DNA of 64,000 bases from Agromyces italicus DSM 16388. GTDB taxonomy: Bacteria > Actinomycetota > Actinomycetes > Actinomycetales > Microbacteriaceae. This document shows, one piece after another, positions 37,699-48,382 of the stretch. The notes beneath the pieces are model-generated. The model was not told where the DNA came from. It searched no databases and saw only the letters and a list, made by a program, of their open reading frames with translations. A program made the translations under genes and the position numbers. Where the stretch lies: contig NZ_ATXF01000007.1 of the NCBI RefSeq assembly GCF_000421545.1, positions 248,001 to 312,000 of the forward strand. The letters run 5' to 3'. The first letter of the stretch is position 1, and the number at the start of each line of letters is the position of its first letter.

Positions 37699-39555
37699 TC
37701 AGCCCTCGGCGATCGGCTGCGGCGCCGCCGACGACCCGGCGAGCGGCAGCATGACCCGGAAGGTCGCCCCGCCACCCGGCGTCTCGATGACGTCGACCGC
37801 GCCGTTGTGCGCCGCGACGATCGAGGAGACGATCGCGAGCCCGAGGCCGGAGCCGCCCGTCTCGCGCGTGCGCGAGGTATCGGCCCGCCAGAAGCGCTGG
37901 AAGATCTTCTCGCGGATCTGCGGCGGAATGCCCTCGCCGTGATCGACGACCTCGATCACGGCGCGCTCGGCGACATCGTCGATCGACACGCGGATCTCGA
38001 GCGGGCTGCCGTCGTTCGTGAAGCGGATCGCGTTGCCCATCAGGTTCGTGATGACCTGACGGATCTTGTTCTCCTCGGCGAGCACCACCGCGCGCCGAAC
38101 GGGTTTCGGCGTCGAATCGGCGGCATGCGCGGCAGCCTGCGCTGCGGTGGCGGCCGTGCGTTCGGCGGCCTTCGCCGCGGCATCGGCACGCGCAGCCTGC
38201 GCCGCGCTCTGGCGGCCCGCGCGCTTCGCAGCCTGCGCAGCCGCGGTCGCCGCACGACGGGCGGCCTGAGCCTCCTTGCGTGCGACCGCCGCGGCCGAGG
38301 GCTCGCTGCGGGGCTGCCGGCCGCGCAGTCGCGCCAGTGTGGCGCCGGCGAACGAGATCGGGCCGGTCGCCGCCGCGCGCGCCGAGGGGTCGAGTTCGAC
38401 CTCGAGCTCGGGTGCGGCGTCGGCCGCGGCATCCGCAGCGCCCAACTCTTCGGGCGCGATCACGGTGACCGTGCGCCCAGGGTGCGCCGCCATGGTGTCG
38501 AGGGCGGCGTCGCGGGCGAGCGGCACGAGGTCGACCTCGGCGAGCTCGAGCGGCTTCGCCTCGTCGAGGCGGGCGAGGGCGAGCAGGTCTTCGACGAGGC
38601 CGCCCATGCGGATGGCCTCCTTCTCGATCCGGTCCATCGCCTGCGCCACTTCGTCGGGCGACTGCAGCGCGCCCATCCGGTAGAGCTCGGCGTAGCCGCG
38701 CACCGAGACGAGCGGGGTGCGCAGCTCGTGCGAGGCGTCGCCGACGAAACGGCGCATCTGGTCGATCGTGCGGGCACGGTCGCGGAAGGCCCGGTCGATG
38801 CGGTTGAGCATCGTGTTGAGCGAACGGTTGAGGCGGCCGACCTCGGTGTTCGGCGTCGCTCCGCCGAGCCGCTGGCTGAAGTCGCCGTCGGCGATCGCCG
38901 CCGCGGTGCGTTCGACCTCGCGAAGGGGGCCGAAGGTGCTCGTCACGAGCATGCGGGTGAGGAGAGCACCCACGAGCACGACGCCGAAGCCGAAGCCGAA
39001 GAAGATCGTGAGGTAGACGGCGAGCAGGCGCTCGGTGTCCTGCGTCGAGACGGCGATCACGATCGGCACGAGCGTGCCGTGCGAGTCTGCGGTCATCAGC
39101 GCCGCGACGGCGCGGAAGGTGGGGTCGCCGTTCGCGTCGTCGAGCGTGAACGTCTGGTAGTGCCCGCTGTTCATGGCGGTGACCTGCGCCTGGGTCATCG
39201 TCGACGGGAAGACCGGCCACTGCTCCTCGGGAACGCTCTCCCAGTTGTTGCGCTTGTACTCGCCGCTCGCGGTGTAGATCGCGACGAACACGTCGTCCTT
39301 CGACGAGAAGTCGAGCTGGTTGAGATTCGTCTGCACCCGGGGCTTGTCGCTGTCGATCTCGAAGTACTGCTTCATCGATCCCGACGCGATCGCCTCGAGC
39401 TTCGACCCCATCTGGTCCTCGACGTAGGAGCGCAGCATCGCGGCCGTGCCGATGCCCGAGACGAGCAGCCCGAGCGTCAGCATCAGCACCGTCACCCCGG
39501 TGATCTTGGTGCGGAGCGAGATGCGGTTCCACCGCTCGAACAACGTCTGATTCAT
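37699..39555 (-). CDS. Sensor histidine kinase with Ala-rich insertion (TcrY/TrcS-like)
   Basis: 618-residue membrane kinase. Two membrane helices (about 22-42 and 178-200) bracket an extracellular sensor; HAMP spans about 205-257; HisKA has VGDASHELRTP with H276. The HATPase domain begins near residue 355, but between its first strand (TVTVIAPEE) and the N-box (KIRQVITNLMGNAIRF) lies an insertion at about 371-486, rich in Ala/Arg and predicted helical. After it, DHGEGIPP and GGSGLGLAIVSSIV are intact, so the kinase is probably functional. It is cotranscribed with the downstream-facing response regulator gene (31-base gap). Typical family members are about 480-500 residues. Confidence 0.92.
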   Translation of the reverse strand: MNQTLFERWNRISLRTKITGVTVLMLTLGLLVSGIGTAAMLRSYVEDQMGSKLEAIASGSMKQYFEIDSDKPRVQTNLNQLDFSSKDDVFVAIYTASGEYKRNNWESVPEEQWPVFPSTMTQAQVTAMNSGHYQTFTLDDANGDPTFRAVAALMTADSHGTLVPIVIAVSTQDTERLLAVYLTIFFGFGFGVVLVGALLTRMLVTSTFGPLREVERTAAAIADGDFSQRLGGATPNTEVGRLNRSLNTMLNRIDRAFRDRARTIDQMRRFVGDASHELRTPLVSVRGYAELYRMGALQSPDEVAQAMDRIEKEAIRMGGLVEDLLALARLDEAKPLELAEVDLVPLARDAALDTMAAHPGRTVTVIAPEELGAADAAADAAPELEVELDPSARAAATGPISFAGATLARLRGRQPRSEPSAAAVARKEAQAARRAATAAAQAAKRAGRQSAAQAARADAAAKAAERTAATAAQAAAHAADSTPKPVRRAVVLAEENKIRQVITNLMGNAIRFTNDGSPLEIRVSIDDVAERAVIEVVDHGEGIPPQIREKIFQRFWRADTSRTRETGGSGLGLAIVSSIVAAHNGAVDVIETPGGGATFRVMLPLAGSSAAPQPIAEG

Positions 39556-39586
39556 GGCGGGCCGAGTCTAGGCGGCGGAACCTGAG

Positions 39587-40282
39587 TCAGGGCTTGGAGG
39601 AGGACTTGAGCATGTACCCGAACCCCCGCTTGGTCTGGATCAGCGGTTCGGCGGAGTGCTGGTCGAGCTTGCGGCGCAAGTACGAGATGTAGCTCTCGAC
39701 GATGCCGGCATCGCCGTTGAAGTCGTACTCCCACACGTGGTCGAGGATCTGGGCCTTCGACAGCACGCGATTCGGGTTCAGCATGAGGTAGCGCAGCAGC
39801 TTGAACTCGGTGGGGGAGAGCTCGACGGGCACGTCGCCGACGAGCACCTCGTGGGTGTCCTGGTCCATCGTGAGTTCGCCGGTGCGGATCACCGCGTCTT
39901 CTTCGGCGTGCATGGTACGGCGCAGGATCGCCTTGATGCGGGCGACGATCTCGTCGAGCGAGAAGGGTTTGGTGACGTAGTCGTCGCCGCCGACCGTGAG
40001 GCCGGTGATCTTGTCCTCCGTGTCGTCCTTCGCGGTGAGGAAGAGGATGGGCGCAGTGTAGCCCGCCGAACGCAGCCGCTTGGTGACGCCGAAGCCGTTC
40101 ATGTCGGGCAGCATCACGTCGAGGATGATCAGGTCGGGCTCCTCCTCGAGCACGGCCGAGATGGTCTGCGCGCCGTTGCCGACGGCGCGCACCGCGAAGC
40201 CGGCGAAGCGCAGGCTGGTGGTGAGAAGGTCGCGGATGTTGGGCTCGTCGTCGACGATGAGAATGCGAGGTCCGTCGCTCAT
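39587..40282 (-). CDS. OmpR-family response regulator (TcrA/TrcR-like)
   Basis: 231-residue partner of the kinase that follows it. Receiver: VDDEPNIRDLL, phosphoacceptor D55 in LIILDVMLPDMNG, and VTKPFSLDEIVARI. Winged helix: LSPTEFKLLRYLMLNPNRVLSKAQILDHVWEYDFNGDAGIVESYISYLRRK pattern (key residues W, Y, D, G, V) typical of TcrA/TrcR/PrrA. ATG 40282 was chosen because the receiver begins directly after it. Target genes are unknown. Confidence 0.93.
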   Translation of the reverse strand: MSDGPRILIVDDEPNIRDLLTTSLRFAGFAVRAVGNGAQTISAVLEEEPDLIILDVMLPDMNGFGVTKRLRSAGYTAPILFLTAKDDTEDKITGLTVGGDDYVTKPFSLDEIVARIKAILRRTMHAEEDAVIRTGELTMDQDTHEVLVGDVPVELSPTEFKLLRYLMLNPNRVLSKAQILDHVWEYDFNGDAGIVESYISYLRRKLDQHSAEPLIQTKRGFGYMLKSSSKP

Positions 40283-40337
40283 GTCTCGATTCTCTTGACG
40301 TTCGCTGAATCTTGGCTGTGAGTCGTGTGGACGACGG

Positions 40338-41009
40338 TCAATTCGGTGCGGCGACGACCCGGATGCAGCAACTGCCGGCGCCGGGGTCGAGGAGCACTCG
40401 GGCGGGGTCGGCGCCGGTGGAGCGCGCCATGCCGCAGACGAGGGCATGGTTGAGATCGCAGACGACGGCGGGGTTCTCGAGGGCGAGCCGGTGAAAGGGG
40501 CAGGTGCCGAGCGTGACGCCCGATTCGCCGTCGTCGTGCGGTTCGAACCCGGCCGCGTCGAGCGCGGTGCCGAGATCGTCGGATGCCCCGGCGAGCCCTC
40601 GACCCGCCCGCTCGGCGGCCTCGTGCAGCGCTTCACGCACCGGCACGCCCTCGGCGGCCCGTGCGATCGCCTCGGCCATGACCCGGCCGCCGAGCTCGTA
40701 GAGCCGCGACGGAAGGCTCAGGCCGACCTCGTGCTCGGCCCGGCGGTAGAGTTTCGCGGGCCGCCCGGCGCCCGGGCCGGTGCGACCGGTGAGCCGACGG
40801 GACTCGGTCGTGAGCAGGCCCGCCTCGACGAGGCGGTCGAGGTGGAAGGCCGCGGTGCTCCGCGGGAGTTCGAGGGCTTCGGCGACGTGGTCGCGACCGA
40901 CGGCATCACGACTGGTCGAGACGACGCGGTAGACACGGCGTCGCGCCGGGTCGGCGAGCGCGCCGAGCGCGCTGATCGCGTCGGGGTGGCCCTTCGCTGG
41001 GGTGCCCAT
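40338..41009 (-). CDS. Winged-helix regulator with SufR-like cysteine pattern
   Basis: 223 residues. An ArsR/MarR-like winged helix (about 10-85: LADPARRRVYRVVS, LELPRSTAAFHLDRLVEAGLL) is followed by a C-terminal sensor with Cys at 170, 184, 192, 214 and 215. C170-X13-C184-X29-C214 is close to the [4Fe-4S]-binding pattern of SufR, so it may sense iron, oxidants or nitric oxide (inference). TAGGAT lies exactly six bases before ATG 41009 with no Shine-Dalgarno, predicting a leaderless mRNA. Divergent from the folE operon with 84 bases between, hence its probable regulator. Confidence 0.85.
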   Translation of the reverse strand: MGTPAKGHPDAISALGALADPARRRVYRVVSTSRDAVGRDHVAEALELPRSTAAFHLDRLVEAGLLTTESRRLTGRTGPGAGRPAKLYRRAEHEVGLSLPSRLYELGGRVMAEAIARAAEGVPVREALHEAAERAGRGLAGASDDLGTALDAAGFEPHDDGESGVTLGTCPFHRLALENPAVVCDLNHALVCGMARSTGADPARVLLDPGAGSCCIRVVAAPN

Positions 41010-41015
41010 GATCGG

Positions 41016-41069
41016 ATCCTATCTCTAAATGCAGCAAACATTGACAAAAGAATTCCGCGGGCCTAGCCT
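41016..41069. promoter_or_regulatory. Divergent promoters and candidate operator, regulator / folE operon
   Basis: Rightward: TTGACA (41041-41046), 17 bases, TAGCCT (41064-41069), a near-ideal promoter. Leftward: TAGGAT (41021-41016 on the minus strand). Between them AATG (41028-41031) and CATT (41039-41042) form a small inverted repeat that touches the -35 and could bind the divergent regulator. Confidence 0.65.
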
Positions 41070-41093
41070 CGGCAGCAGGGGCCGGAGGGAAGC

Positions 41094-41756
41094 ATGACGT
41101 CGAGCGAATTCGCAGCCGAGGTACCGAGGCTCCACGCCGTCACCGCCGACGAGGCGGAGCACGCGATCGAGGTGGAGCACGCCGACGGGGAGCACGCCGT
41201 CGATCGCGAGGCGGCGGCCGAGGCGGTGCGCGCCCTGCTCGTCGCGCTCGGCCGCGATGTCGAGAGCGAGCACCTCGCCGACACGCCGCGACGGGTCGCC
41301 GAGGCGTACATCGAGATGCTGACACCCCGCCGCTTCACGCCGACCACCTTTCCTGGCGAGGGCTACGGCGAACTCGTCGTCGTCCGCGACATCCCCTTCG
41401 ACTCGCTCTGCGAGCACCATCTGCTGCCGTTCCGCGGCGTCGCCCATCTCGGCTACGTCCCCGGCGGCAGGATCATCGGGCTCTCGAAGCTCGCACGGGT
41501 GGTCGAGCAGTACGCCCGCGACCTGCAGGTGCAGGAGCGGATGACCGGGCAGATCGCCGAGCGGCTCGTCGAGGTGCTCGACCCCGAGGGTGTCGGCGTG
41601 ATCGTCGAGGCCGAGCATCTCTGCATGTCGCTCCGCGGTGTGCAGGTGCCGGGCACCCGCACGATCACGAGTTCGCTCGTGGGCGTCGTGCGCGATGACG
41701 CTCGGACGCGGCGCGAGTTCCTCGAGCGCTGCGGCATCGGCAGAACGGAGCAGTGA
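41094..41756 (+). CDS. folE: GTP cyclohydrolase I
   Basis: Converts GTP to 7,8-dihydroneopterin triphosphate. 220 residues with zinc ligands C106 and H109 (LCEHHLLPF) and C177 (EHLCMSLRG), and TITSSLVG near the end. The first about 35 residues are an acidic, His-containing extension unlike typical FolE. ATG follows GGAGGGA. It heads a four-gene operon with one-base or overlapping junctions. Usual FolE partners (folB, folK, ftsH) are absent, suggesting a specialised second copy rather than the housekeeping enzyme. Confidence 0.95.
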   Translation: MTSSEFAAEVPRLHAVTADEAEHAIEVEHADGEHAVDREAAAEAVRALLVALGRDVESEHLADTPRRVAEAYIEMLTPRRFTPTTFPGEGYGELVVVRDIPFDSLCEHHLLPFRGVAHLGYVPGGRIIGLSKLARVVEQYARDLQVQERMTGQIAERLVEVLDPEGVGVIVEAEHLCMSLRGVQVPGTRTITSSLVGVVRDDARTRREFLERCGIGRTEQ

Positions 41757-41757
41757 G

Positions 41758-43002
41758 ATGAGCGCGCAACCACTCGTGATCGTCGGCGGCGGGCTCGCGG
41801 GAGCACGGGCCGCGGAGGGGGCGAGGCAGGCGGGCCACACCGGCCCGATCACGATCGTCGCCGCCGAGGACGCGATGCCGTACATCCGGCCGCCGCTGTC
41901 GAAGGAGTTCCTGACCGGTGCCGCAGAACGAGATGTCGTCGACGTGCACCCGGCCGAGTGGTACGCCGACGAGCACGTCGAGGTGTTGCGCGGGGTGCGG
42001 GCGACCGCGCTCGATCCGGGCGGTCATCGGCTCCGGCTCGCCGACGATCGCACCCTCGCGTACGCCCGGCTCCTCATCGCGACGGGGGCGAACGCGCGGC
42101 GCTGGCCGGCGCCCGAGGGCGAGCTCGCCGGGGTGCACGTCCTCCGTACCTTCGCCGACTCCGTCGCCCTCCGCGACGCGCTCTCGGGAGGCGGACGACG
42201 CATGGTCGCGATCGGAGCCGGATGGATCGGCCTCGAGGCGACCGCCGCCGCGCGCGCCTACGGCGACGAGGTCACGGTGGTCGCCCCCGAGGCGGTGCCG
42301 CTGGCCGCGGCCGTCGGCAGTGCCGTGGGCGAGGTGTTCGCCGAGCTCCACCGGACCAACGGGGTCGACCTCCGGATGTCGACGGGCGTCGCCGCTCTCC
42401 GCAGCACTGAGGGGCGGGTGACCGGGGTCGAGCTCGACACCGGCGAGACCGTACCGGCCGACCTCGTGCTCGTCGGCATCGGCGCGGTCCCCGCGACCGG
42501 CCTCGCCGACGCAGCCGGCCTCGAGGTGCAGAACGGCATCGTCGCGGATGCCTCGTTCCGCACCAGTGCCGACGATGTGTACGCCGTCGGCGACGTGGCG
42601 AGCGTCTACCACCCCGTGCTCGAGGCGCACCTGCGGACCGAGCACTGGGCCAACGCCGAGAACGCGGGCCGGGCCGCCGGCCGGGTGCTCGCGGGCGAGT
42701 CGCTCGAGTACGCCGAGATCCCCTACTTCTACACCGACCAGTACGATCTCGGCATGGAGTACTCGGGGTATGGAACCCTCGCCGACGGCGTCGACCCGGT
42801 GTTCCGCGGCGACCCGGGCGCCCGCGAATTCATCGCCTTCTGGCAGCGCGACGGGCGGGTCGTCGCCGGCATGAACGTCAACGTGTGGGACGTGAGCGAC
42901 GGGGTGCAGCGGCTCATCCGCTCGGGCGCCCGGATCGATCCGGCGCGCCTGGCCGACCCGGCGGTGTCCTTCGACGAACTCGTCGCCGAGGCATCCGCGT
43001 GA
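41758..43002 (+). CDS. FAD-dependent NAD(P)H oxidoreductase (ferredoxin-reductase type)
   Basis: 414 residues. FAD-binding VIVGGGLAGARAA at the N-terminus, RPPLSKEFL motif of rubredoxin/rhodocoxin reductases, NAD-binding AIGAGWIGLEATAAARAYG in the middle, and DDVYAVGDVA before a C-terminal Reductase_C domain (YFYTDQYDLGMEYSGYG). It begins one base after folE and overlaps the next gene by four bases. No ferredoxin or P450 is adjacent. It could feed electrons to a pterin reduction or hydroxylation step (inference). Confidence 0.92.
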   Translation: MSAQPLVIVGGGLAGARAAEGARQAGHTGPITIVAAEDAMPYIRPPLSKEFLTGAAERDVVDVHPAEWYADEHVEVLRGVRATALDPGGHRLRLADDRTLAYARLLIATGANARRWPAPEGELAGVHVLRTFADSVALRDALSGGGRRMVAIGAGWIGLEATAAARAYGDEVTVVAPEAVPLAAAVGSAVGEVFAELHRTNGVDLRMSTGVAALRSTEGRVTGVELDTGETVPADLVLVGIGAVPATGLADAAGLEVQNGIVADASFRTSADDVYAVGDVASVYHPVLEAHLRTEHWANAENAGRAAGRVLAGESLEYAEIPYFYTDQYDLGMEYSGYGTLADGVDPVFRGDPGAREFIAFWQRDGRVVAGMNVNVWDVSDGVQRLIRSGARIDPARLADPAVSFDELVAEASA

Positions 43003-43925
43003 CCGCAGCGCCACCGCCCGGCTGGGCCGACCCGAACCTCGCTGAGCCGGTGCGCCGTATCGCCGGGCGCGAGGTCGACTTCCGGCGTTCCATCGCGATC
43101 ATGGCGGTCGTGAACCGCACGCCCGACTCGTTCTACGACCGAGGAGCGACCTTCGGCCTCGACGCGGCCGTCGACGCGGCGCGCCGCGCGATCGACGCAG
43201 GGGCTGCGTGGGTCGACATCGGGGGCGCGAAGTTCGGGCCGGGCCCGGCGATCCCCGTCGTCGAGGAGATCGACCGGGTCGTGCCCGTCGTCGCCGCGCT
43301 CGCAGGCTCGGGCGCCACGCTCTCGGTCGACACCTTCCATGCCGAGGTGGCCGCCGCGGCGATCGCCGCGGGCGCCCACGTCGTCAACGACACGACCGGC
43401 GTGCACGACCCCGCGCTCGCCGACGTCGTCGCCGAATCCGAGGCGACGCTCGTCATCACGCACAGCCGGGCGGAGCCGCGCCAGTGGTTTCCGAGGCCCC
43501 GGTACGACGACGTGGTCGACGAGATCGCGGCGTTCCTGGAGGAGCGCGTCGAGCTCGCGGTCTCGCGCGGCGTGCCCGAATCCCGCATCGTGCTCGACCC
43601 GGGGCACGACCTCAACAAGAACACCCTGCAGTCGCTCGAGCTGACCCGGCGGTTCGCCGAGTTCACGCGGCTCGGCTTCCCCCTCCTCGCCGCCGTCTCG
43701 AACAAGGACTTCATCGGCGAGAGCCTCGACCGGCCCCGCGGCGAACGTCTCTCGGGCTCGATCGCGGCGGCCGTCTTCTGCGTGATCCAGGGCGCGCGCA
43801 TCCTGCGCATGCACAACGTCGCCGAGTCGGTCGACGCGGCGCGCATGGTCGAGGCGATCATGGGATGGCGCGAGCCCGCCTATCTCAAGCACAACATGAT
43901 CGACGGCCCGAACGAGGAGCCGTGA
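42999..43925 (+). CDS. Dihydropteroate synthase homologue, FolP2-type
   Basis: 308-residue TIM barrel starting at a GTG inside the upstream stop (GTGA). MAVVNRTPDSFYDRGATF resembles mycobacterial FolP2 rather than FolP1. In true DHPS the second loop is GG-STRPG; here it reads GGAKFGPG (75-82), losing the Thr/Arg that contact the pterin and p-aminobenzoate. The Lys of SNKDFIGE and the RxH pair in RMHNV remain. It probably binds a pterin diphosphate or related ligand but may not make dihydropteroate; FolP2 of mycobacteria lacks that activity (recollection). Part of the folE operon. Confidence 0.85.
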   Translation: MTAAPPPGWADPNLAEPVRRIAGREVDFRRSIAIMAVVNRTPDSFYDRGATFGLDAAVDAARRAIDAGAAWVDIGGAKFGPGPAIPVVEEIDRVVPVVAALAGSGATLSVDTFHAEVAAAAIAAGAHVVNDTTGVHDPALADVVAESEATLVITHSRAEPRQWFPRPRYDDVVDEIAAFLEERVELAVSRGVPESRIVLDPGHDLNKNTLQSLELTRRFAEFTRLGFPLLAAVSNKDFIGESLDRPRGERLSGSIAAAVFCVIQGARILRMHNVAESVDAARMVEAIMGWREPAYLKHNMIDGPNEEP

Positions 43926-44674
43926 CCGGGGCCGAGGGCGGGTCGACCGTCGCCGAACCGGCCGGCCACATCGACCGGGCCCGACTGCTGGCCGCGTACG
44001 CCCTGCCCGACCGAGTGACGTCCCGCGTCCGCATGAACTTCGTGATGAGCCTCGATGGCGCTGTGACCCTCGACGGCCGCAGCGGCGGCCTCGGCGACGA
44101 CGCCGACCGGCTGGCGATGGGGGTGCTGCGCACCCTCGCCGATGTCGTGCTCGTCGGCGCAGGGACGGTACGCGCCGAAGGCTACGGCGGCCTGCGCCTG
44201 CGCGGCGAGAACGTCGCCTGGCGGCGCGAGCACGGCCTCGCCGATCAGCCCCGCCTCGCGGTCGTCTCCTCGGCGCTCGAGCTCGAACCCGCGCACCCCT
44301 TCTTCGCCGACGCGGTCACCCGCCCGATCGTCGTCACCCACGCGGCATCCGACCCGCTTCGTCGGGCGGAGCTCGCCGAGGTGGCCGACGTGCTCGTCTG
44401 CGGCGACGCGGTCGTCGACCCGCTCGCGATGCGCGAAGCGCTCGCGGCGGAGGGGCTCGCCCAGATCCTCTGCGAGGGCGGCCCGCACCTGTTCGCCGCG
44501 CTCATCGAGGTCGACGCCGTCGACGAGCTGTGCCTGAGCCTCAGCCCGCTGCTCGTCTCGGGCGACGCCGGCCGCATCACCGCGGGCGGACACGAGCACG
44601 CGCGCCGCCTGCGGCTCGTGCACGCGATCCCCGTGGGCGACCTGCTGCTCCTCCGCTACGCTCGCGCGCGCTGA
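43922..44674 (+). CDS. RibD-C / DHFR-like reductase
   Basis: 250 residues of the RibD C-terminal reductase fold, without the deaminase domain. MNFVMSLDGAVTLDGRSG and VLVGAGTVRAEGYGG form the NADPH and substrate sites; ILCEGGPHLFAALIE is the second signature. The M. tuberculosis homologue Rv2671 can act as an alternative dihydrofolate reductase (recollection). A GTG start overlaps the FolP2 stop by four bases. As the last operon gene it may reduce the pterin product. Confidence 0.88.
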   Translation: MTGAEGGSTVAEPAGHIDRARLLAAYALPDRVTSRVRMNFVMSLDGAVTLDGRSGGLGDDADRLAMGVLRTLADVVLVGAGTVRAEGYGGLRLRGENVAWRREHGLADQPRLAVVSSALELEPAHPFFADAVTRPIVVTHAASDPLRRAELAEVADVLVCGDAVVDPLAMREALAAEGLAQILCEGGPHLFAALIEVDAVDELCLSLSPLLVSGDAGRITAGGHEHARRLRLVHAIPVGDLLLLRYARAR

Positions 44675-44822: not shown

Positions 44823-46469
44823 TCAGGCCGCGGGGTCGAGGGTGTGCGCGTCGAGGATCGTGTACGAGTACCCCTGCTCGGCGAGGAACCGCTGCCGGTT
44901 CTGCGCGAAATCCTGATCGACGGTGTCGCGCGAGACGAGCGTGTAGAAGTTGGCGCTGAGTCCCGACTCCTTCGGGCGCAGCAGCCGGCCGAGGCGCTGG
45001 GCCTCCTCCTGCCGCGAGCCGAACGAGCCCGACACCTGGATGGCGACCGTCGCCTCGGGCAGGTCGACCGAGAAGTTCGCGACCTTCGACACCACGAGCA
45101 CCGGCGTCGTGCCCTCGCGGAACTCCTGGAAGAGTCGCTCGCGCTCGTCGACGGGCGTCGAGCCGGTGAGCTTCGGGGCGTCGAGCGATTCGGCGAGCTC
45201 GTCGATCTGGTCGAGGTACTGGCCGATCACGAGGATGCGCTCGCCCGCGTGGCGGGCGACGAGCTCGCGCACGACGCCGAGCTTCGTCGGCGCGGTCGCC
45301 GCCAGCCGGTAGCGCTCGTCGTCGGCGGATGCCGCGTACGCGAGCCGCTCGGACTGCGGCAGGTCGATGCGCACCTCGAAGCATGCCGCCGGCGAGATGA
45401 ACCCCTGCGCCTCGATCTCCTTCCACGGGGCGTCGAAGCGCTTGGGGCCGATGAGCGAGAATACATCGCCCTCGCGGCCGTCCTCTCGCACGAGGGTCGC
45501 GGTGAGGCCGAGCCTCCGGCGGGCCTGCAACTCGGCCGTGAGCTTGAACACCGGAGCCGGCAGCAGATGCACCTCGTCGTAGACCACGAGCCCCCAGTCG
45601 AGGGCGTCGAGCAGGGCGAGGTGGGCGTACTCGCCCTTCCGCTTCGCGGTGAGGATCTGGTAGGTCGCGATCGTGACGGGCTTGACCTCCTTCACCTGCC
45701 CCGAGTACTCGCCGATCTCGTCGGCGGAAAGGCTCGTGCGCTTCAACAACTCGTCGCGCCACTGCCGGGCGCTCACGGTGTTCGTGACGAGGATGAGGGT
45801 CGTCGTCTTCGCGGTGGCCATCGCGCCCGCGCCGACGAGGGTCTTGCCCGCGCCGCAGGGCAGCACGACGACTCCCGAGCCGCCTTCGAAGAAGTTGTCG
45901 ACCGCCTTCTGCTGGTAGTCGCGCAGGTGCCAGCCCGTTTCGTCGAGCTCGATCTCGTGCGGAGTGCCCGGCGTGTAGCCGGCGAGATCCTCGGCAGGCC
46001 AGCCCAGCTTCACGAGCTCCTGCTTGAGCTGCCCCCGCGCCCACGGCTCGACGAGGAAGCTCGTGTCGCCCACGCGTTCGCCGATGAGCGGCGCGATCCT
46101 CCGGGCGCCCACGACCTCGGTGAGCACGGCCACGTCGTCGCCGTGCAGGCGGAGCTCGCCGTCGTCGGTGCGATCGATCACGAGGCGGCCGTAGCGCCCG
46201 ACGGTCTCGCGCATGTCGACGGCGACTGTCTGCGGTACCGGGAATCTCGCATAGCGTTCGAGGGTGCCGAGCATGTCCTCAGCGTCGTGGCCCGCCGCGC
46301 GGGCGTTCCAGAGGCCGAGCCTCGTGATCCGATAGGTGTGCACGTGTTCGGGGGCGCGTTCGAGCTCGGCGAACACCGCGAGGTCGTGCCTGGCGTCTTC
46401 GGCGAGTGGGTGCGCGACCTCGAGCAGCACGGTTCGGTCGCTCTGCACGATGAGGGGGCCGTCTGACAT
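44823..46469 (-). CDS. XPB/Ssl2-type DNA helicase
   Basis: 548-residue SF2 helicase related to eukaryotic repair helicase XPB. After an N-terminal damage-recognition-like region (1-165), the motor has the Q-like RDYQQKAVDNFF, Walker A LPCGAGKTLVG, DEVH box VVYDEVHLLPAP, GLTATLVRED with a RED motif, and helicase motif VI EEAQRLGRLLRP. TAGACT lies eight bases before ATG 46469 with no Shine-Dalgarno. Next to it is the family's usual partner gene, 44 bases upstream. Role in DNA repair is inferred. Confidence 0.95.
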   Translation of the reverse strand: MSDGPLIVQSDRTVLLEVAHPLAEDARHDLAVFAELERAPEHVHTYRITRLGLWNARAAGHDAEDMLGTLERYARFPVPQTVAVDMRETVGRYGRLVIDRTDDGELRLHGDDVAVLTEVVGARRIAPLIGERVGDTSFLVEPWARGQLKQELVKLGWPAEDLAGYTPGTPHEIELDETGWHLRDYQQKAVDNFFEGGSGVVVLPCGAGKTLVGAGAMATAKTTTLILVTNTVSARQWRDELLKRTSLSADEIGEYSGQVKEVKPVTIATYQILTAKRKGEYAHLALLDALDWGLVVYDEVHLLPAPVFKLTAELQARRRLGLTATLVREDGREGDVFSLIGPKRFDAPWKEIEAQGFISPAACFEVRIDLPQSERLAYAASADDERYRLAATAPTKLGVVRELVARHAGERILVIGQYLDQIDELAESLDAPKLTGSTPVDERERLFQEFREGTTPVLVVSKVANFSVDLPEATVAIQVSGSFGSRQEEAQRLGRLLRPKESGLSANFYTLVSRDTVDQDFAQNRQRFLAEQGYSYTILDAHTLDPAA

Positions 46470-46513
46470 AACCGTCGAGTCTACGCCCGCTTCGTGAGAG
46501 GGCGGCCGTGCGC

Positions 46514-48382
46514 TCAGGCGTCGGCGGGGGCTGGTGAGACGGCCGCGATGGCCGAGAGCGGCAGGGTGCGCTCGATGTCGGCCCTGCGATCGCGCGCGCG
46601 GAGCCGACCGTTCGCGACGCTCGCGGGGGCGAGGAGGTACTCGGCGGTATCGCCCCCCGGCATCCGCACCGTCACCGTGAGCGTCTCCTTCGAGCGGGCG
46701 GCGGCCTCGAGCTGGCGGGCGAGCCACGCCTGCTCGGCGTCGCCGCCGACGCTTTGCTCCTCGGCCATGCGGTCGAGCAGCGCCGCGATCGGATCGGGGG
46801 CCGGGGCGATGACCGGAGCGGGCGCCAGCCGGTGCCGCTGAAGTCGCACGATCTCGCCCGCCGCATCCTCGGCGGCGACGGGGTATTTCGCGTCGGAGAG
46901 CGCCCAGAACACCACATCGGGCCCGAACCGGGAGAGGAGCCGGTGGGTGCCGGTCTGGCGAAGGGCGAGCGAGGAGATCGACTGGTCGACGGCGAGCGTG
47001 CGGATGAGCTGCTCGTCGTCGGAGCGGATCGAGGCCCGTGCCGGCGCATCGGAGTCGGCGGCGCTCGACACGCGCACCGCCCCGAACCGCTCAGCGGCCT
47101 CGGCGACGAGATACGCGAGCGGCTGCGGGATTCCGGTGAGCGAGATCCCGCCGAGGAAGTCGAGGATGGATTCGGCCGTCTCGCCGGCGGCGAGCCCGCG
47201 ATTCACCGATGCCGCGCTCACGCGATACGTCGAGGCGAGGTCGCGGGCCTCGACGTCGGCGACGCCGCGGAGCCGAGCGTCGAGGGCCGGCTCGAGCGGC
47301 CCGGGCGCGACGATCGAGAGGTCGTGCTGCAGGTACACGCGGTCGACCTGGGCCGGGAAGTGGGCGGCGATGAGGTCTGCCGCGCGCTCGAGCTCGCCCC
47401 CGAGCACGAGACGACCCGCCTCGACCGGCTCGCCCGCGACCGCGAGCCCGAGCGCCTCCGCCTCGCCGAAGAGCCGGTCGAGGCCGTCGTCGAGCCACGC
47501 CCCGCCCGCCGGGTACAGCCACCGCACGTCGTCGCGCAGGGCGGTCGCGGTCAGGGGATCGTTGCGGCGGGCCACGAGGCGGCGCAGCGCCTCGGGAATG
47601 CGATCGCGCCAGCACTCGGCGAGCCGGAGCCATCGGCCGCGGGCGGGCTCGAGCGACCAGCTCGCGCCGCGGTCGGATTCGAGCCAGAAGGCGCCGTCGC
47701 GCACGACGAGTCCGGCCTCGTCGGCGCGATGGAAGAGGCGGGGCAGCGCGTCGAGCTCGGTGCCGCTCGCCTCGGCGAGCCGCTTCGAGTCGGGCAGGGC
47801 GAGCCCGCCCTTCGCCAGTTCGCGGGCGGGTTGGGATCCGAGCGCGGCGAGCAGTTCGGACGTCGCCGTCACCGTCGCGTACGCCGCCTCGGAGGAGCTC
47901 CGTGCGAGCAGGCTCCGATCGACGGAGTCGCTCGGCACGAGCACCGGGGGTGCAGGCGCCGCGAGGTCGCCCGGGGCCGGCAGATCGTCACCGAGCCGGG
48001 GCACGAGCCGCGCGGCGACGGCGACGGGCACGTGCACCCGACTGTCTCGGCGCACCACGAGGAGGGATCGGGACAGCTCGTCGATCAGTTCGCCGGTGGC
48101 ATCCGCGCGCGTGCTGGTGGCGCCGAGCGCGGCGAGCTCGCCCTGCACCGCCTCGACGGTGCTGGCGCCGGTGCCGTCGGCGAGGGTGGCCGCGACGGCG
48201 AGCACCGCGAGGCGCGGCCGGTCGAGGCGACCGATCGCCTGGTCGAGCGAGTCGGGCGCGAGGAGCGCCTCGGCGAGATCGAAGAGGTCGTGGACGCCCG
48301 CGGTCTCGAACTCGCGCGTCCGCAGTGCTGCGGCGAGGTCATCTCGCGTCAGCTCGCGGAGTCGTGCGGCGAGTTCGAGCAT
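46514..48382 (-). CDS. XPB partner, helicase-associated domain protein
   Basis: 622 residues. N-terminal helical repeats (LAARLRELTRDDLAAALRTR...) with winged-helix-like segments, and a C-terminal Helicase_C_3/XPB-associated domain (about 420-600: LAYLVAEAAERFGAVRVSS, LRQTGTHRLLSRFGPDVVFW). The same gene pair is found in mycobacteria (Rv0861c/Rv0862c). It has no ATPase motifs and probably forms a complex with, or loads, XPB. Nine bases separate it from the small membrane gene upstream. Confidence 0.88.
   Translation of the reverse strand: MLELAARLRELTRDDLAAALRTREFETAGVHDLFDLAEALLAPDSLDQAIGRLDRPRLAVLAVAATLADGTGASTVEAVQGELAALGATSTRADATGELIDELSRSLLVVRRDSRVHVPVAVAARLVPRLGDDLPAPGDLAAPAPPVLVPSDSVDRSLLARSSSEAAYATVTATSELLAALGSQPARELAKGGLALPDSKRLAEASGTELDALPRLFHRADEAGLVVRDGAFWLESDRGASWSLEPARGRWLRLAECWRDRIPEALRRLVARRNDPLTATALRDDVRWLYPAGGAWLDDGLDRLFGEAEALGLAVAGEPVEAGRLVLGGELERAADLIAAHFPAQVDRVYLQHDLSIVAPGPLEPALDARLRGVADVEARDLASTYRVSAASVNRGLAAGETAESILDFLGGISLTGIPQPLAYLVAEAAERFGAVRVSSAADSDAPARASIRSDDEQLIRTLAVDQSISSLALRQTGTHRLLSRFGPDVVFWALSDAKYPVAAEDAAGEIVRLQRHRLAPAPVIAPAPDPIAALLDRMAEEQSVGGDAEQAWLARQLEAAARSKETLTVTVRMPGGDTAEYLLAPASVANGRLRARDRRADIERTLPLSAIAAVSPAPADA

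What the first reader, a model, noticed from the sequence alone, without database searches (positions are those of the whole stretch)
40338..44674. Non-canonical pterin operon (FolE, FAD reductase, FolP2-type, RibD-C) with a SufR-like regulator
Four genes run with one-base or four-base overlaps behind a strong TTGACA-17-TAGCCT promoter. They encode GTP cyclohydrolase I, an NAD(P)H/FAD reductase, a DHPS homologue whose pterin/pABA loop has changed from STRPG to KFGPG, and a DHFR-like RibD-C reductase. Housekeeping partners folB and folK are absent. The divergent regulator has C170-X13-C184-X29-C214, close to the [4Fe-4S] SufR pattern. I infer a dedicated pathway making a modified pterin cofactor, perhaps reduced by the flavoprotein and controlled by iron or oxidants. 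The motifs are seen; the pathway is inference.
Basis: partly seen in the sequence, partly recalled or inferred. Interest (0 to 1): 0.75.

Follow-up and report, generated by a model that had tools for sequence, protein, structure and literature searches.

The report
Second pterin-making operon in soil actinobacteria
A soil bacterium carries, beside its normal folic-acid genes, a second small set of genes that probably makes a different reduced pterin, a folate-like helper molecule, and its two core enzymes resemble two poorly understood proteins of the tuberculosis bacterium that the papers searched do not link.

Summary
A divergent regulator faces folE, a ferredoxin-reductase-like flavoprotein, a DHPS paralogue and an Rv2671-like RibD-C reductase. 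The genome also has a complete ftsH-folE-folP-folB-folK locus, a DHFR and a full-length RibD, so this is not the housekeeping folate or riboflavin set.

The conserved unit is the last two genes. In 199 Microbacteriaceae genomes both are present in 106, both absent in 91, and they disagree in 2; 103 of 106 pairs are adjacent. Regulator, folE and flavoprotein are add-ons (15, 19 and 33 of 80 named loci).

The paralogue keeps the pterin pocket but none of 95 rows keeps the Ser-Thr-Arg loop. The reductase matches Rv2671 structures titled as pteridine complexes. A sister paralogue group that includes Rv1207 also lies beside the reductase in 10 of 40 hand-picked loci, three families. The regulator's cysteine spacing equals ArnR, not SufR.

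Best reading: a dedicated pterin branch in which the paralogue makes a dihydropterin conjugate and the reductase brings it to the tetrahydro form. Acceptor, product and user are unknown. Main rival: an inducible, antifolate-tolerant second folate branch.

The parts
40338..41009 (-). Regulator: winged-helix (HTH_20) protein with C-terminal C-X13-C-X29-C-C; spacing as in ArnR
   Evidence: spacing compared with paper passages seen
41041..41069 (+). Promoter of the operon, TTGACA-17-TAGCCT; the element TTGACAAAAGAATT at 41041-41054 occurs once in the whole genome at up to 2 mismatches
   Evidence: sequence; pattern in 16 of 16 stretches; single genome hit
41094..41756 (+). GTP cyclohydrolase I (folE, second copy) with Zn-ligand motifs CEHH and EHLCM; in a clade separate from housekeeping FolE
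41758..43002 (+). FAD-dependent ferredoxin-reductase-like protein (Pyr_redox_2 + Reductase_C)
42999..43925 (+). DHPS paralogue (sister group of FolP2/Rv1207), pterin pocket kept, loop 2 changed
43230..43244 (+). Codons for KFGPG, the altered loop 2 (STRPG in housekeeping DHPS)
   Evidence: sequence; column table
43922..44674 (+). RibD-C reductase of the Rv2671 type

Best explanation
A dedicated, inducible pterin branch beside folate synthesis. The second FolE makes dihydroneopterin triphosphate; housekeeping FolB and FolK presumably carry it to 6-hydroxymethyl-dihydropterin pyrophosphate; the DHPS paralogue joins the pterin to an acceptor other than p-aminobenzoate (or to pABA in an unusual way); the Rv2671-like reductase then reduces the 7,8-dihydropterin ring to the tetrahydro form with NADPH. 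The regulator probably represses folE until its iron-sulphur cluster is disturbed by oxygen, NO or iron shortage; the flavoprotein probably feeds electrons to an unidentified user or partner. Shown: gene set, linkage, phylogeny, active-site columns, conserved promoter, fold matches. Inferred: every reaction step, the acceptor, the signal and the use.
For: Co-occurrence in 199 Microbacteriaceae genomes: 106 both, 1 paralogue only (G062), 1 reductase only (G183, a draft), 91 neither; 103 of 106 adjacent on one strand. Presence of the paralogue varies inside 12 genera that I picked from the tables. The pair sits in different neighbourhoods and once has the reverse order. FolE joined it by at least two routes: a separate FolE clade in regulator-bearing loci (15 rows, support 100; 13 of the 15 named regulator loci gave a FolE long enough for the tree), and in genomes G004 and G150 the genome's only FolE lies beside the pair while housekeeping folP is elsewhere. 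A distant genome (G436) has regulator // DUF2231 - FolE - small gene - SDR - reductase - Rv1207-type FolP2. Pocket columns N22, D56, N115, D185, K221, R255, H257 are invariant in 16 housekeeping, 21 Rv1207-type and 95 rows of this type (D96 is E in 5 of 95), while the S61-T62-R63 triplet is in 16, 0 and 0 of these. RibD-C model: the three best matches are Rv2671, one titled with the dihydropteridine ring of dihydropteroic acid (4xt4), one with the tetrahydropteridine ring of THF (4xt6). Paralogue model: DHPS fold, including 3tyd with PPi and DHP+. A full RibD and a DHFR are elsewhere in the genome. Rv1207-type FolP2 has the reductase on its strand within 2.5 kb in 10 of 40 hand-picked loci.
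Against: No reaction was tested. Loop-2 change alone does not exclude use of pABA: Thr62 in loop 2 was the commonest site of change in sulfa-resistant E. coli DHPS (15 of 20 isolates; passage of PMC10328974). No folB, folK or acceptor-making gene is in the operon. Two known tetrahydropterin users were not found: NO synthase 0 of 199 and aromatic amino acid hydroxylase 0 of 199 genomes. FolE is near the pair in only 19 of 80 named loci, the flavoprotein in 33. In 6 of 80 loci (Arthrobacter agilis UMCV2 and five Actinoplanes-type) no reductase was found beside the paralogue, and in 5 Thermomonosporaceae loci it is on the other strand. In 8 of 8 loci of this paralogue type taken from other genomes of the order or class (L150 to L156, L191) no reductase was seen in the fetched stretch, though several of those genomes have one elsewhere. 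Some genomes have Rv1207-type FolP2 and no clear reductase by this query: G208, G232, G250, G222, G372. Three of the 107 reductase hits (G190, G183, G177) are partial and score close to ordinary RibD hits.
Confidence: 0.5

Rival explanations
1. Inducible, antifolate-tolerant second folate branch: FolE raises pterin supply, the paralogue is a sulfonamide-insensitive DHPS and the RibD-C protein a DHFR substitute, so the product is ordinary dihydropteroate and tetrahydrofolate.
For: The three enzymes are steps of folate synthesis; position 62, the commonest site of change in sulfa-resistant E. coli DHPS, is Phe in 95 of 95 rows; Rv2671 is reported to act as a DHFR (Cheng and Sacchettini 2016, seen only as cited in passages of PMC12855090, and PMC10530724); TIGR01496 DHPS scores above its cut-off.
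Against: M. leprae FolP2, of the sister group, does not complement an E. coli folP mutant (passage of PMC1971073); Sul1 to Sul4 models are far below their cut-offs; the loop change is fixed across the sampled families; housekeeping folP and folA are present with open frames.
Confidence: 0.25
2. The paralogue no longer condenses anything: it binds a pterin as carrier, sensor or hydrolase, and the reductase acts on that same free pterin (for example making a tetrahydropterin as antioxidant or redox carrier with the flavoprotein).
For: Loss of S61-T62-R63 with the pterin pocket kept; loops 1 and 2 are described as binding pyrophosphate and forming the pABA site; redox or membrane genes nearby vary (flavoprotein, SDR, DoxX-like by eye, DUF2231).
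Against: D56, D185, K221 and R255 are kept and a new Arg23 in loop 1 is invariant in both paralogue groups, which suggests retained catalysis (inference).
Confidence: 0.15
3. The module makes a pterin chromophore or UV screen for a photolyase or cryptochrome.
For: A photolyase FAD-domain protein (PF03441) lies directly upstream of the pair in L049 and L050.
Against: In the 213 sequences compared (many short) the only other matches are L017 of the same lineage and a 29%-identity hit about 5 kb away in L078.
Confidence: 0.05
4. The RibD-C gene is a riboflavin enzyme and the cluster an accident of gene order.
For: RibD_C domain.
Against: RibD (TIGR00326) over its cut-off in 18 of 18 genomes searched, own genome included; linkage and co-occurrence; fold match to Rv2671 with pteridine.
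Confidence: 0.02

Closest known systems
FolP2 / Rv1207 (2vp8), the second DHPS of mycobacteria and other actinobacteria
   Same: Best solved relative by sequence; both groups have Arg23, Asp189 and Asp222 in all rows and His188 and Asn220 in nearly all, and lack S61-T62-R63; joint clade with support 100 against housekeeping FolP
   Different: Outside the Rv1207-type clade (21 rows, support 100); has Phe62, Leu190, Ala217 where that group has Ala62, Phe190, Ser or Ala217; no gpgS found beside it in the 8 stretches; genome G407 carries housekeeping, Rv1207-type and this type together (my assignment from scores)
Rv2671 (4xrb, 4xt4, 4xt6), RibD-like DHFR analogue
   Same: Best sequence match and best fold match, TM about 0.9
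   Different: About 35% identical; linked rows form their own branch (support 90) and Rv2671 lies outside it; in mycobacteria it is not beside folP2 (recalled)
ArnR, NO-sensitive [4Fe-4S] regulator of Corynebacterium
   Same: Cysteine spacing X13 and X29 identical; winged helix at the N-terminus; CPFH at the first Cys in 14 of 14 rows
   Different: No sequence comparison with ArnR was made; it faces folE, not nar or hmp genes
SufR / Rv1460
   Same: Winged helix plus C-terminal cysteines
   Different: Spacing X12 and X27 against X13 and X29; no suf genes in the operon
Methanopterin synthesis (DHPS-like condensation with another arylamine, then a DHFR-like reductase)
   Same: Would work like it in the proposed order of steps (recalled)
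   Different: No other methanopterin gene was searched for

Membership tests
Dihydropteroate synthase (FolP) | TIM-barrel fold and pterin pocket | tested here: met
   Pterin_bind 215 bits; AlphaFold model pLDDT 90.8 matches DHPS complexes; pocket columns kept
Dihydropteroate synthase (FolP) | Loop 2 Ser-Thr-Arg | tested here: not met
   Triplet in 0 of 95 rows of this group, 16 of 16 housekeeping rows (15 Microbacteriaceae, 1 Klebsiella)
Dihydropteroate synthase (FolP) | Makes dihydropteroate from DHPPP and pABA | not testable with these tools
   Needs an enzyme assay
FolP2 / Rv1207 group | Inside the clade holding Rv1207 | tested here: not met
   Rv1207-type rows form one clade, support 100, without it (quick tree with long-branch warnings)
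Sulfonamide-insensitive DHPS (Sul1 to Sul4) | NCBIfam exception models above cut-off | tested here: not met
   101.5 to 151.2 bits against cut-offs of 475 to 600
Rv2671-type reductase | Fold and sequence nearest to Rv2671 rather than RibD or Rib7 | tested here: met
   the NCBIfam equivalog NF010663 is just missed, 182.7 bits against 184
Rv2671-type reductase | Reduces dihydropterins with NADPH | not testable with these tools
   Only by analogy with the solved complexes named
GTP cyclohydrolase I | Family score and Zn-ligand motifs | tested here: met
   TIGR00063 196.1 bits, cut-off 181.6; CEHH and EHLCM
SufR | Cysteine spacing X12, X27 of Rv1460 | tested here: not met
   X13, X29 in the window
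ArnR-like [4Fe-4S] regulator | Cysteine spacing X13, X29 | tested here: met
   Identical spacing; cysteines kept in 14 of 14 rows
ArnR-like [4Fe-4S] regulator | Binds a cluster and responds to NO | not testable with these tools
   -
Housekeeping folate operon | Only folate locus of the genome, with folB and folK | tested here: not met
   Complete ftsH-folE-folP-folB-folK locus at G000:C5
Biopterin-type cofactor for AAH or NOS | An AAH or NOS in the same genomes | tested here: not met
   PF00351 and PF02898: 0 of 199 each; controls found in 1 and 2 of 14 named genomes

The most novel reading that the evidence does not exclude
FolP2-type DHPS paralogues and Rv2671-type reductases are two steps of one unrecognised pathway spread over the actinobacteria, making a non-folate tetrahydropterin conjugate. 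In this Agromyces-like genome it has gained its own GTP cyclohydrolase, flavoprotein and iron-sulphur regulator; in mycobacteria the counterparts Rv1207 and Rv2671 lie apart but would serve the same pathway.
Probability: 0.3. Interest if true: 0.85.

Novelty: new variant of a known kind. Interest (0 to 1): 0.62.

Why it matters
A second DHPS of unknown function has been noted in high-GC Gram-positives since at least 2007 (passage of PMC1971073), and Rv2671 is read as a back-up DHFR. The linkage found here suggests what each is for in relation to the other: maker and reducer of one product. It gives a testable reaction pair in harmless soil bacteria, with a conserved promoter and regulator to work with, and could reveal a new reduced pterin cofactor. 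If the rival is right instead, it describes an intrinsic antifolate by-pass of soil actinobacteria.

Tried and rejected
Rejected: (a) housekeeping folate operon. (b) riboflavin gene. (c) biopterin-type cofactor for NO synthase or aromatic amino acid hydroxylase. (d) SufR membership. (e) a wider regulon sharing the promoter element: TTGACAAAAGAATT occurs once in the genome at up to 2 mismatches; other operator designs were not searched. (f) photolyase partner as a general rule.

The FolP tree is a quick one with long-branch warnings, so whether the window's group is a clade or paraphyletic to the Rv1207 group is open. The 40 Rv1207-type loci were chosen by hand, partly because their relatives already showed the linkage, so 10 of 40 is not a rate.


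Full report
What is there. The window belongs to an unnamed 3.73-Mb genome (G000; the window is C7:248001-312000); the nearest named relatives found for the DHPS paralogue are Agromyces (best 87% identity). Five genes sit at 40338-44674 as described. The three junctions inside the operon are a 1-base gap and two 4-base overlaps. A complete ftsH-folE-folP-folB-folK locus lies on another contig, a DHFR on a third and a full-length RibD on a fourth.

The conserved unit. A search of 199 Microbacteriaceae genomes with the DHPS paralogue and with the RibD-C protein gives 107 positives each under limits that I set. For the paralogue the weakest accepted hit is 9.3e-74 and the next is 7.5e-46 (housekeeping type). 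For the reductase 104 hits reach 4.5e-46 or better; I also accepted three partial ones (G190, G183, G177, 6.7e-36 to 1.6e-25), while the next, RibD-like, hit is 7.6e-22. 106 genomes have both, G062 only the paralogue, G183 (a draft) only the reductase, 91 neither. 103 of 106 pairs are adjacent on one strand (gap under 600 bases), 102 with the reductase downstream and 1 upstream; two of the other three are on split contigs and one is 1.1 kb apart. The genomes are related, so the Fisher test in that call overstates significance, but presence varies inside 12 genera that I picked from the tables. Among 80 named loci (the best 80 of at least 571, so biased to close relatives) the reductase is on the same strand within 2.5 kb in 69, on the other strand in 5 Thermomonosporaceae loci and not seen in 6; the flavoprotein is present in 33, FolE in 19, the regulator in 15. 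The pair sits in different neighbourhoods in Rathayibacter, Plantibacter, Herbiconiux, Frondihabitans, Lacisediminihabitans and Arthrobacter. Against a universal pair: in 8 of 8 loci of this paralogue type from other genomes of the order or class (L150 to L156, L191) no reductase was seen in the stretch fetched.

FolE and regulator. In 15 of 15 named loci with the regulator FolE follows. FolE from 13 of these, from G436 and from the window forms one clade (support 100) apart from housekeeping FolE. In genomes G004 and G150 (G004 has a contig of the same length as Frondihabitans sp. Leaf304, L066; G150 is of its genus) the only FolE lies beside the pair, while housekeeping folP is elsewhere; the incomplete draft G176 looks the same for FolE. 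So folE joined the pair by at least two routes, which is the best evidence that the pair works on a pterin made from GTP. A distant genome (G436, L158) has regulator // DUF2231 - FolE - small gene - SDR - reductase - Rv1207-type FolP2.

The DHPS paralogue. On 132 distinct rows (16 housekeeping, of which 15 Microbacteriaceae and 1 Klebsiella; 21 Rv1207-type; 95 of this type; gene calls of 240 aa or less and identical rows dropped) the pocket columns N22, D56, N115, D185, K221, R255 and H257 are invariant, and D96 is E in 5 of the 95. The S61-T62-R63 triplet is kept in 16, 0 and 0 rows. Both paralogue groups have Arg23, Asp189 and Asp222 in all rows; this group alone has Phe62 and Leu190, in 95 of 95 (numbering from the 5umg chain, residue roles in part recalled). 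The tree separates housekeeping rows from both paralogue groups with support 100 and makes the Rv1207 type one clade; the window's type is its sister or paraphyletic to it. G407 appears to have one of each of the three types. The AlphaFold model (pLDDT 90.8) matches DHPS structures, including 3tyd with PPi and DHP+.

The reductase. The best solved relative is Rv2671 by sequence and by fold, the latter including 4xt4, titled as a complex with the dihydropteridine ring of dihydropteroic acid, and 4xt6 with the tetrahydropteridine ring of THF. Only titles were seen. Linked reductases form one branch (72 rows, support 90); Rv2671 lies outside it. The protein narrowly misses the NCBIfam cut-off of its nearest equivalog.

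Outside the family. In 296 genomes of the class, DHPS paralogues at about 45% identity are common and so are Rv2671-like reductases; I did not compute a class-wide statistic because the score lists have no clean gap. Among 40 hand-picked Rv1207-type loci, 10 have the reductase on the same strand within 2.5 kb, in three families (f33, f23, f26); 7 of the 10 read GpgS - FolP2 - small gene - reductase. Genomes with Rv1207-type FolP2 and no clear reductase by the window's query exist (G208, G232, G250, G222, G372), though a weak score need not mean absence: G290 scores only 1.5e-12 but has a divergent reductase beside FolP2.

Regulation. Cysteines 170, 184, 214 and 215 are kept in 14 of 14 aligned rows, window included, one a fragment. 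The spacing X13/X29 equals ArnR (passages of PMC12343034) and differs from SufR Rv1460 (passages of PMC6034842). A promoter TTGAC-N16-18-TANNNT is in 16 of 16 stretches (expected 0.02), the longer TTGACA[AG]AAGAA in 9 of 16. TTGACAAAAGAATT occurs once in the genome, so no wider regulon is seen with it. That the regulator binds there, and that it senses NO or oxygen, is inference.

How it most likely works. FolE supplies the pterin, housekeeping FolB and FolK activate it, the paralogue makes a dihydropterin conjugate, the reductase makes the tetrahydro form; the flavoprotein probably serves the user. Each reaction is inferred from family and pocket. The chief rival is an antifolate-tolerant second folate branch: Thr62, the commonest site of change in sulfa-resistant E. 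coli DHPS (passage of PMC10328974), is Phe here, and Rv2671 is said to act as a DHFR (passages of PMC12855090, and PMC10530724). Against it, M. leprae FolP2 does not complement E. coli folP (passage of PMC1971073). Neither an AAH nor a NOS was found in the 199 genomes.

Novelty. No paper in the held library has both folP2 and Rv2671, and the listings of the searches for the genes (titles and starts of abstracts seen) show none that describes this operon. Subscription journals are mostly not held, so this is not proof of absence.

Noticed in passing
genomes G004, G150 (L066 is the Frondihabitans locus matching G004): The only folE of the genome lies at the DHPS-paralogue/RibD-C pair, away from housekeeping folP; L088 (another Frondihabitans) has the same gene order but its genome was not checked.
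   Followed up: partly
L152, L155 (family f5): The DHPS paralogue lies next to proteins that read like phenylacetate degradation genes (paaABCDE by eye, no family scan), in L155 on the same strand with a 14-base gap.
   Followed up: no
L049, L050 6044-7168: A photolyase FAD-domain protein of 374 aa lies directly upstream of RibD-C and the DHPS paralogue.
   Followed up: partly
L169, L170, L173, L214 to L217, L221, L222; also L175, L218, L219: A small protein without accepted family match (LigB at E 0.046 in one member) sits between Rv1207-type FolP2 and the RibD-C reductase; in L175, L218 and L219 it follows FolP2 with no reductase seen.
   Followed up: partly
L044 5406-5834, L051 6768-7214: A DoxX-like membrane protein (my reading, no family scan) lies between regulator and folE in two loci; a DUF2231 membrane protein takes that place in L158.
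   Followed up: partly
L079, L082, L084, L055, L051 regulator/folE stretches: Inverted repeat TCTAAAG-N13-CTTTAGA overlapping the -10 region, a candidate operator.
   Followed up: partly
window 37699-40336 and 44823-48382: The operon sits between a two-component system and a helicase-like gene (both by eye); in L036 (Agromyces mediolanus) only the two-gene pair occupies that place, so regulator, folE and flavoprotein look like a gain or loss.
   Followed up: partly
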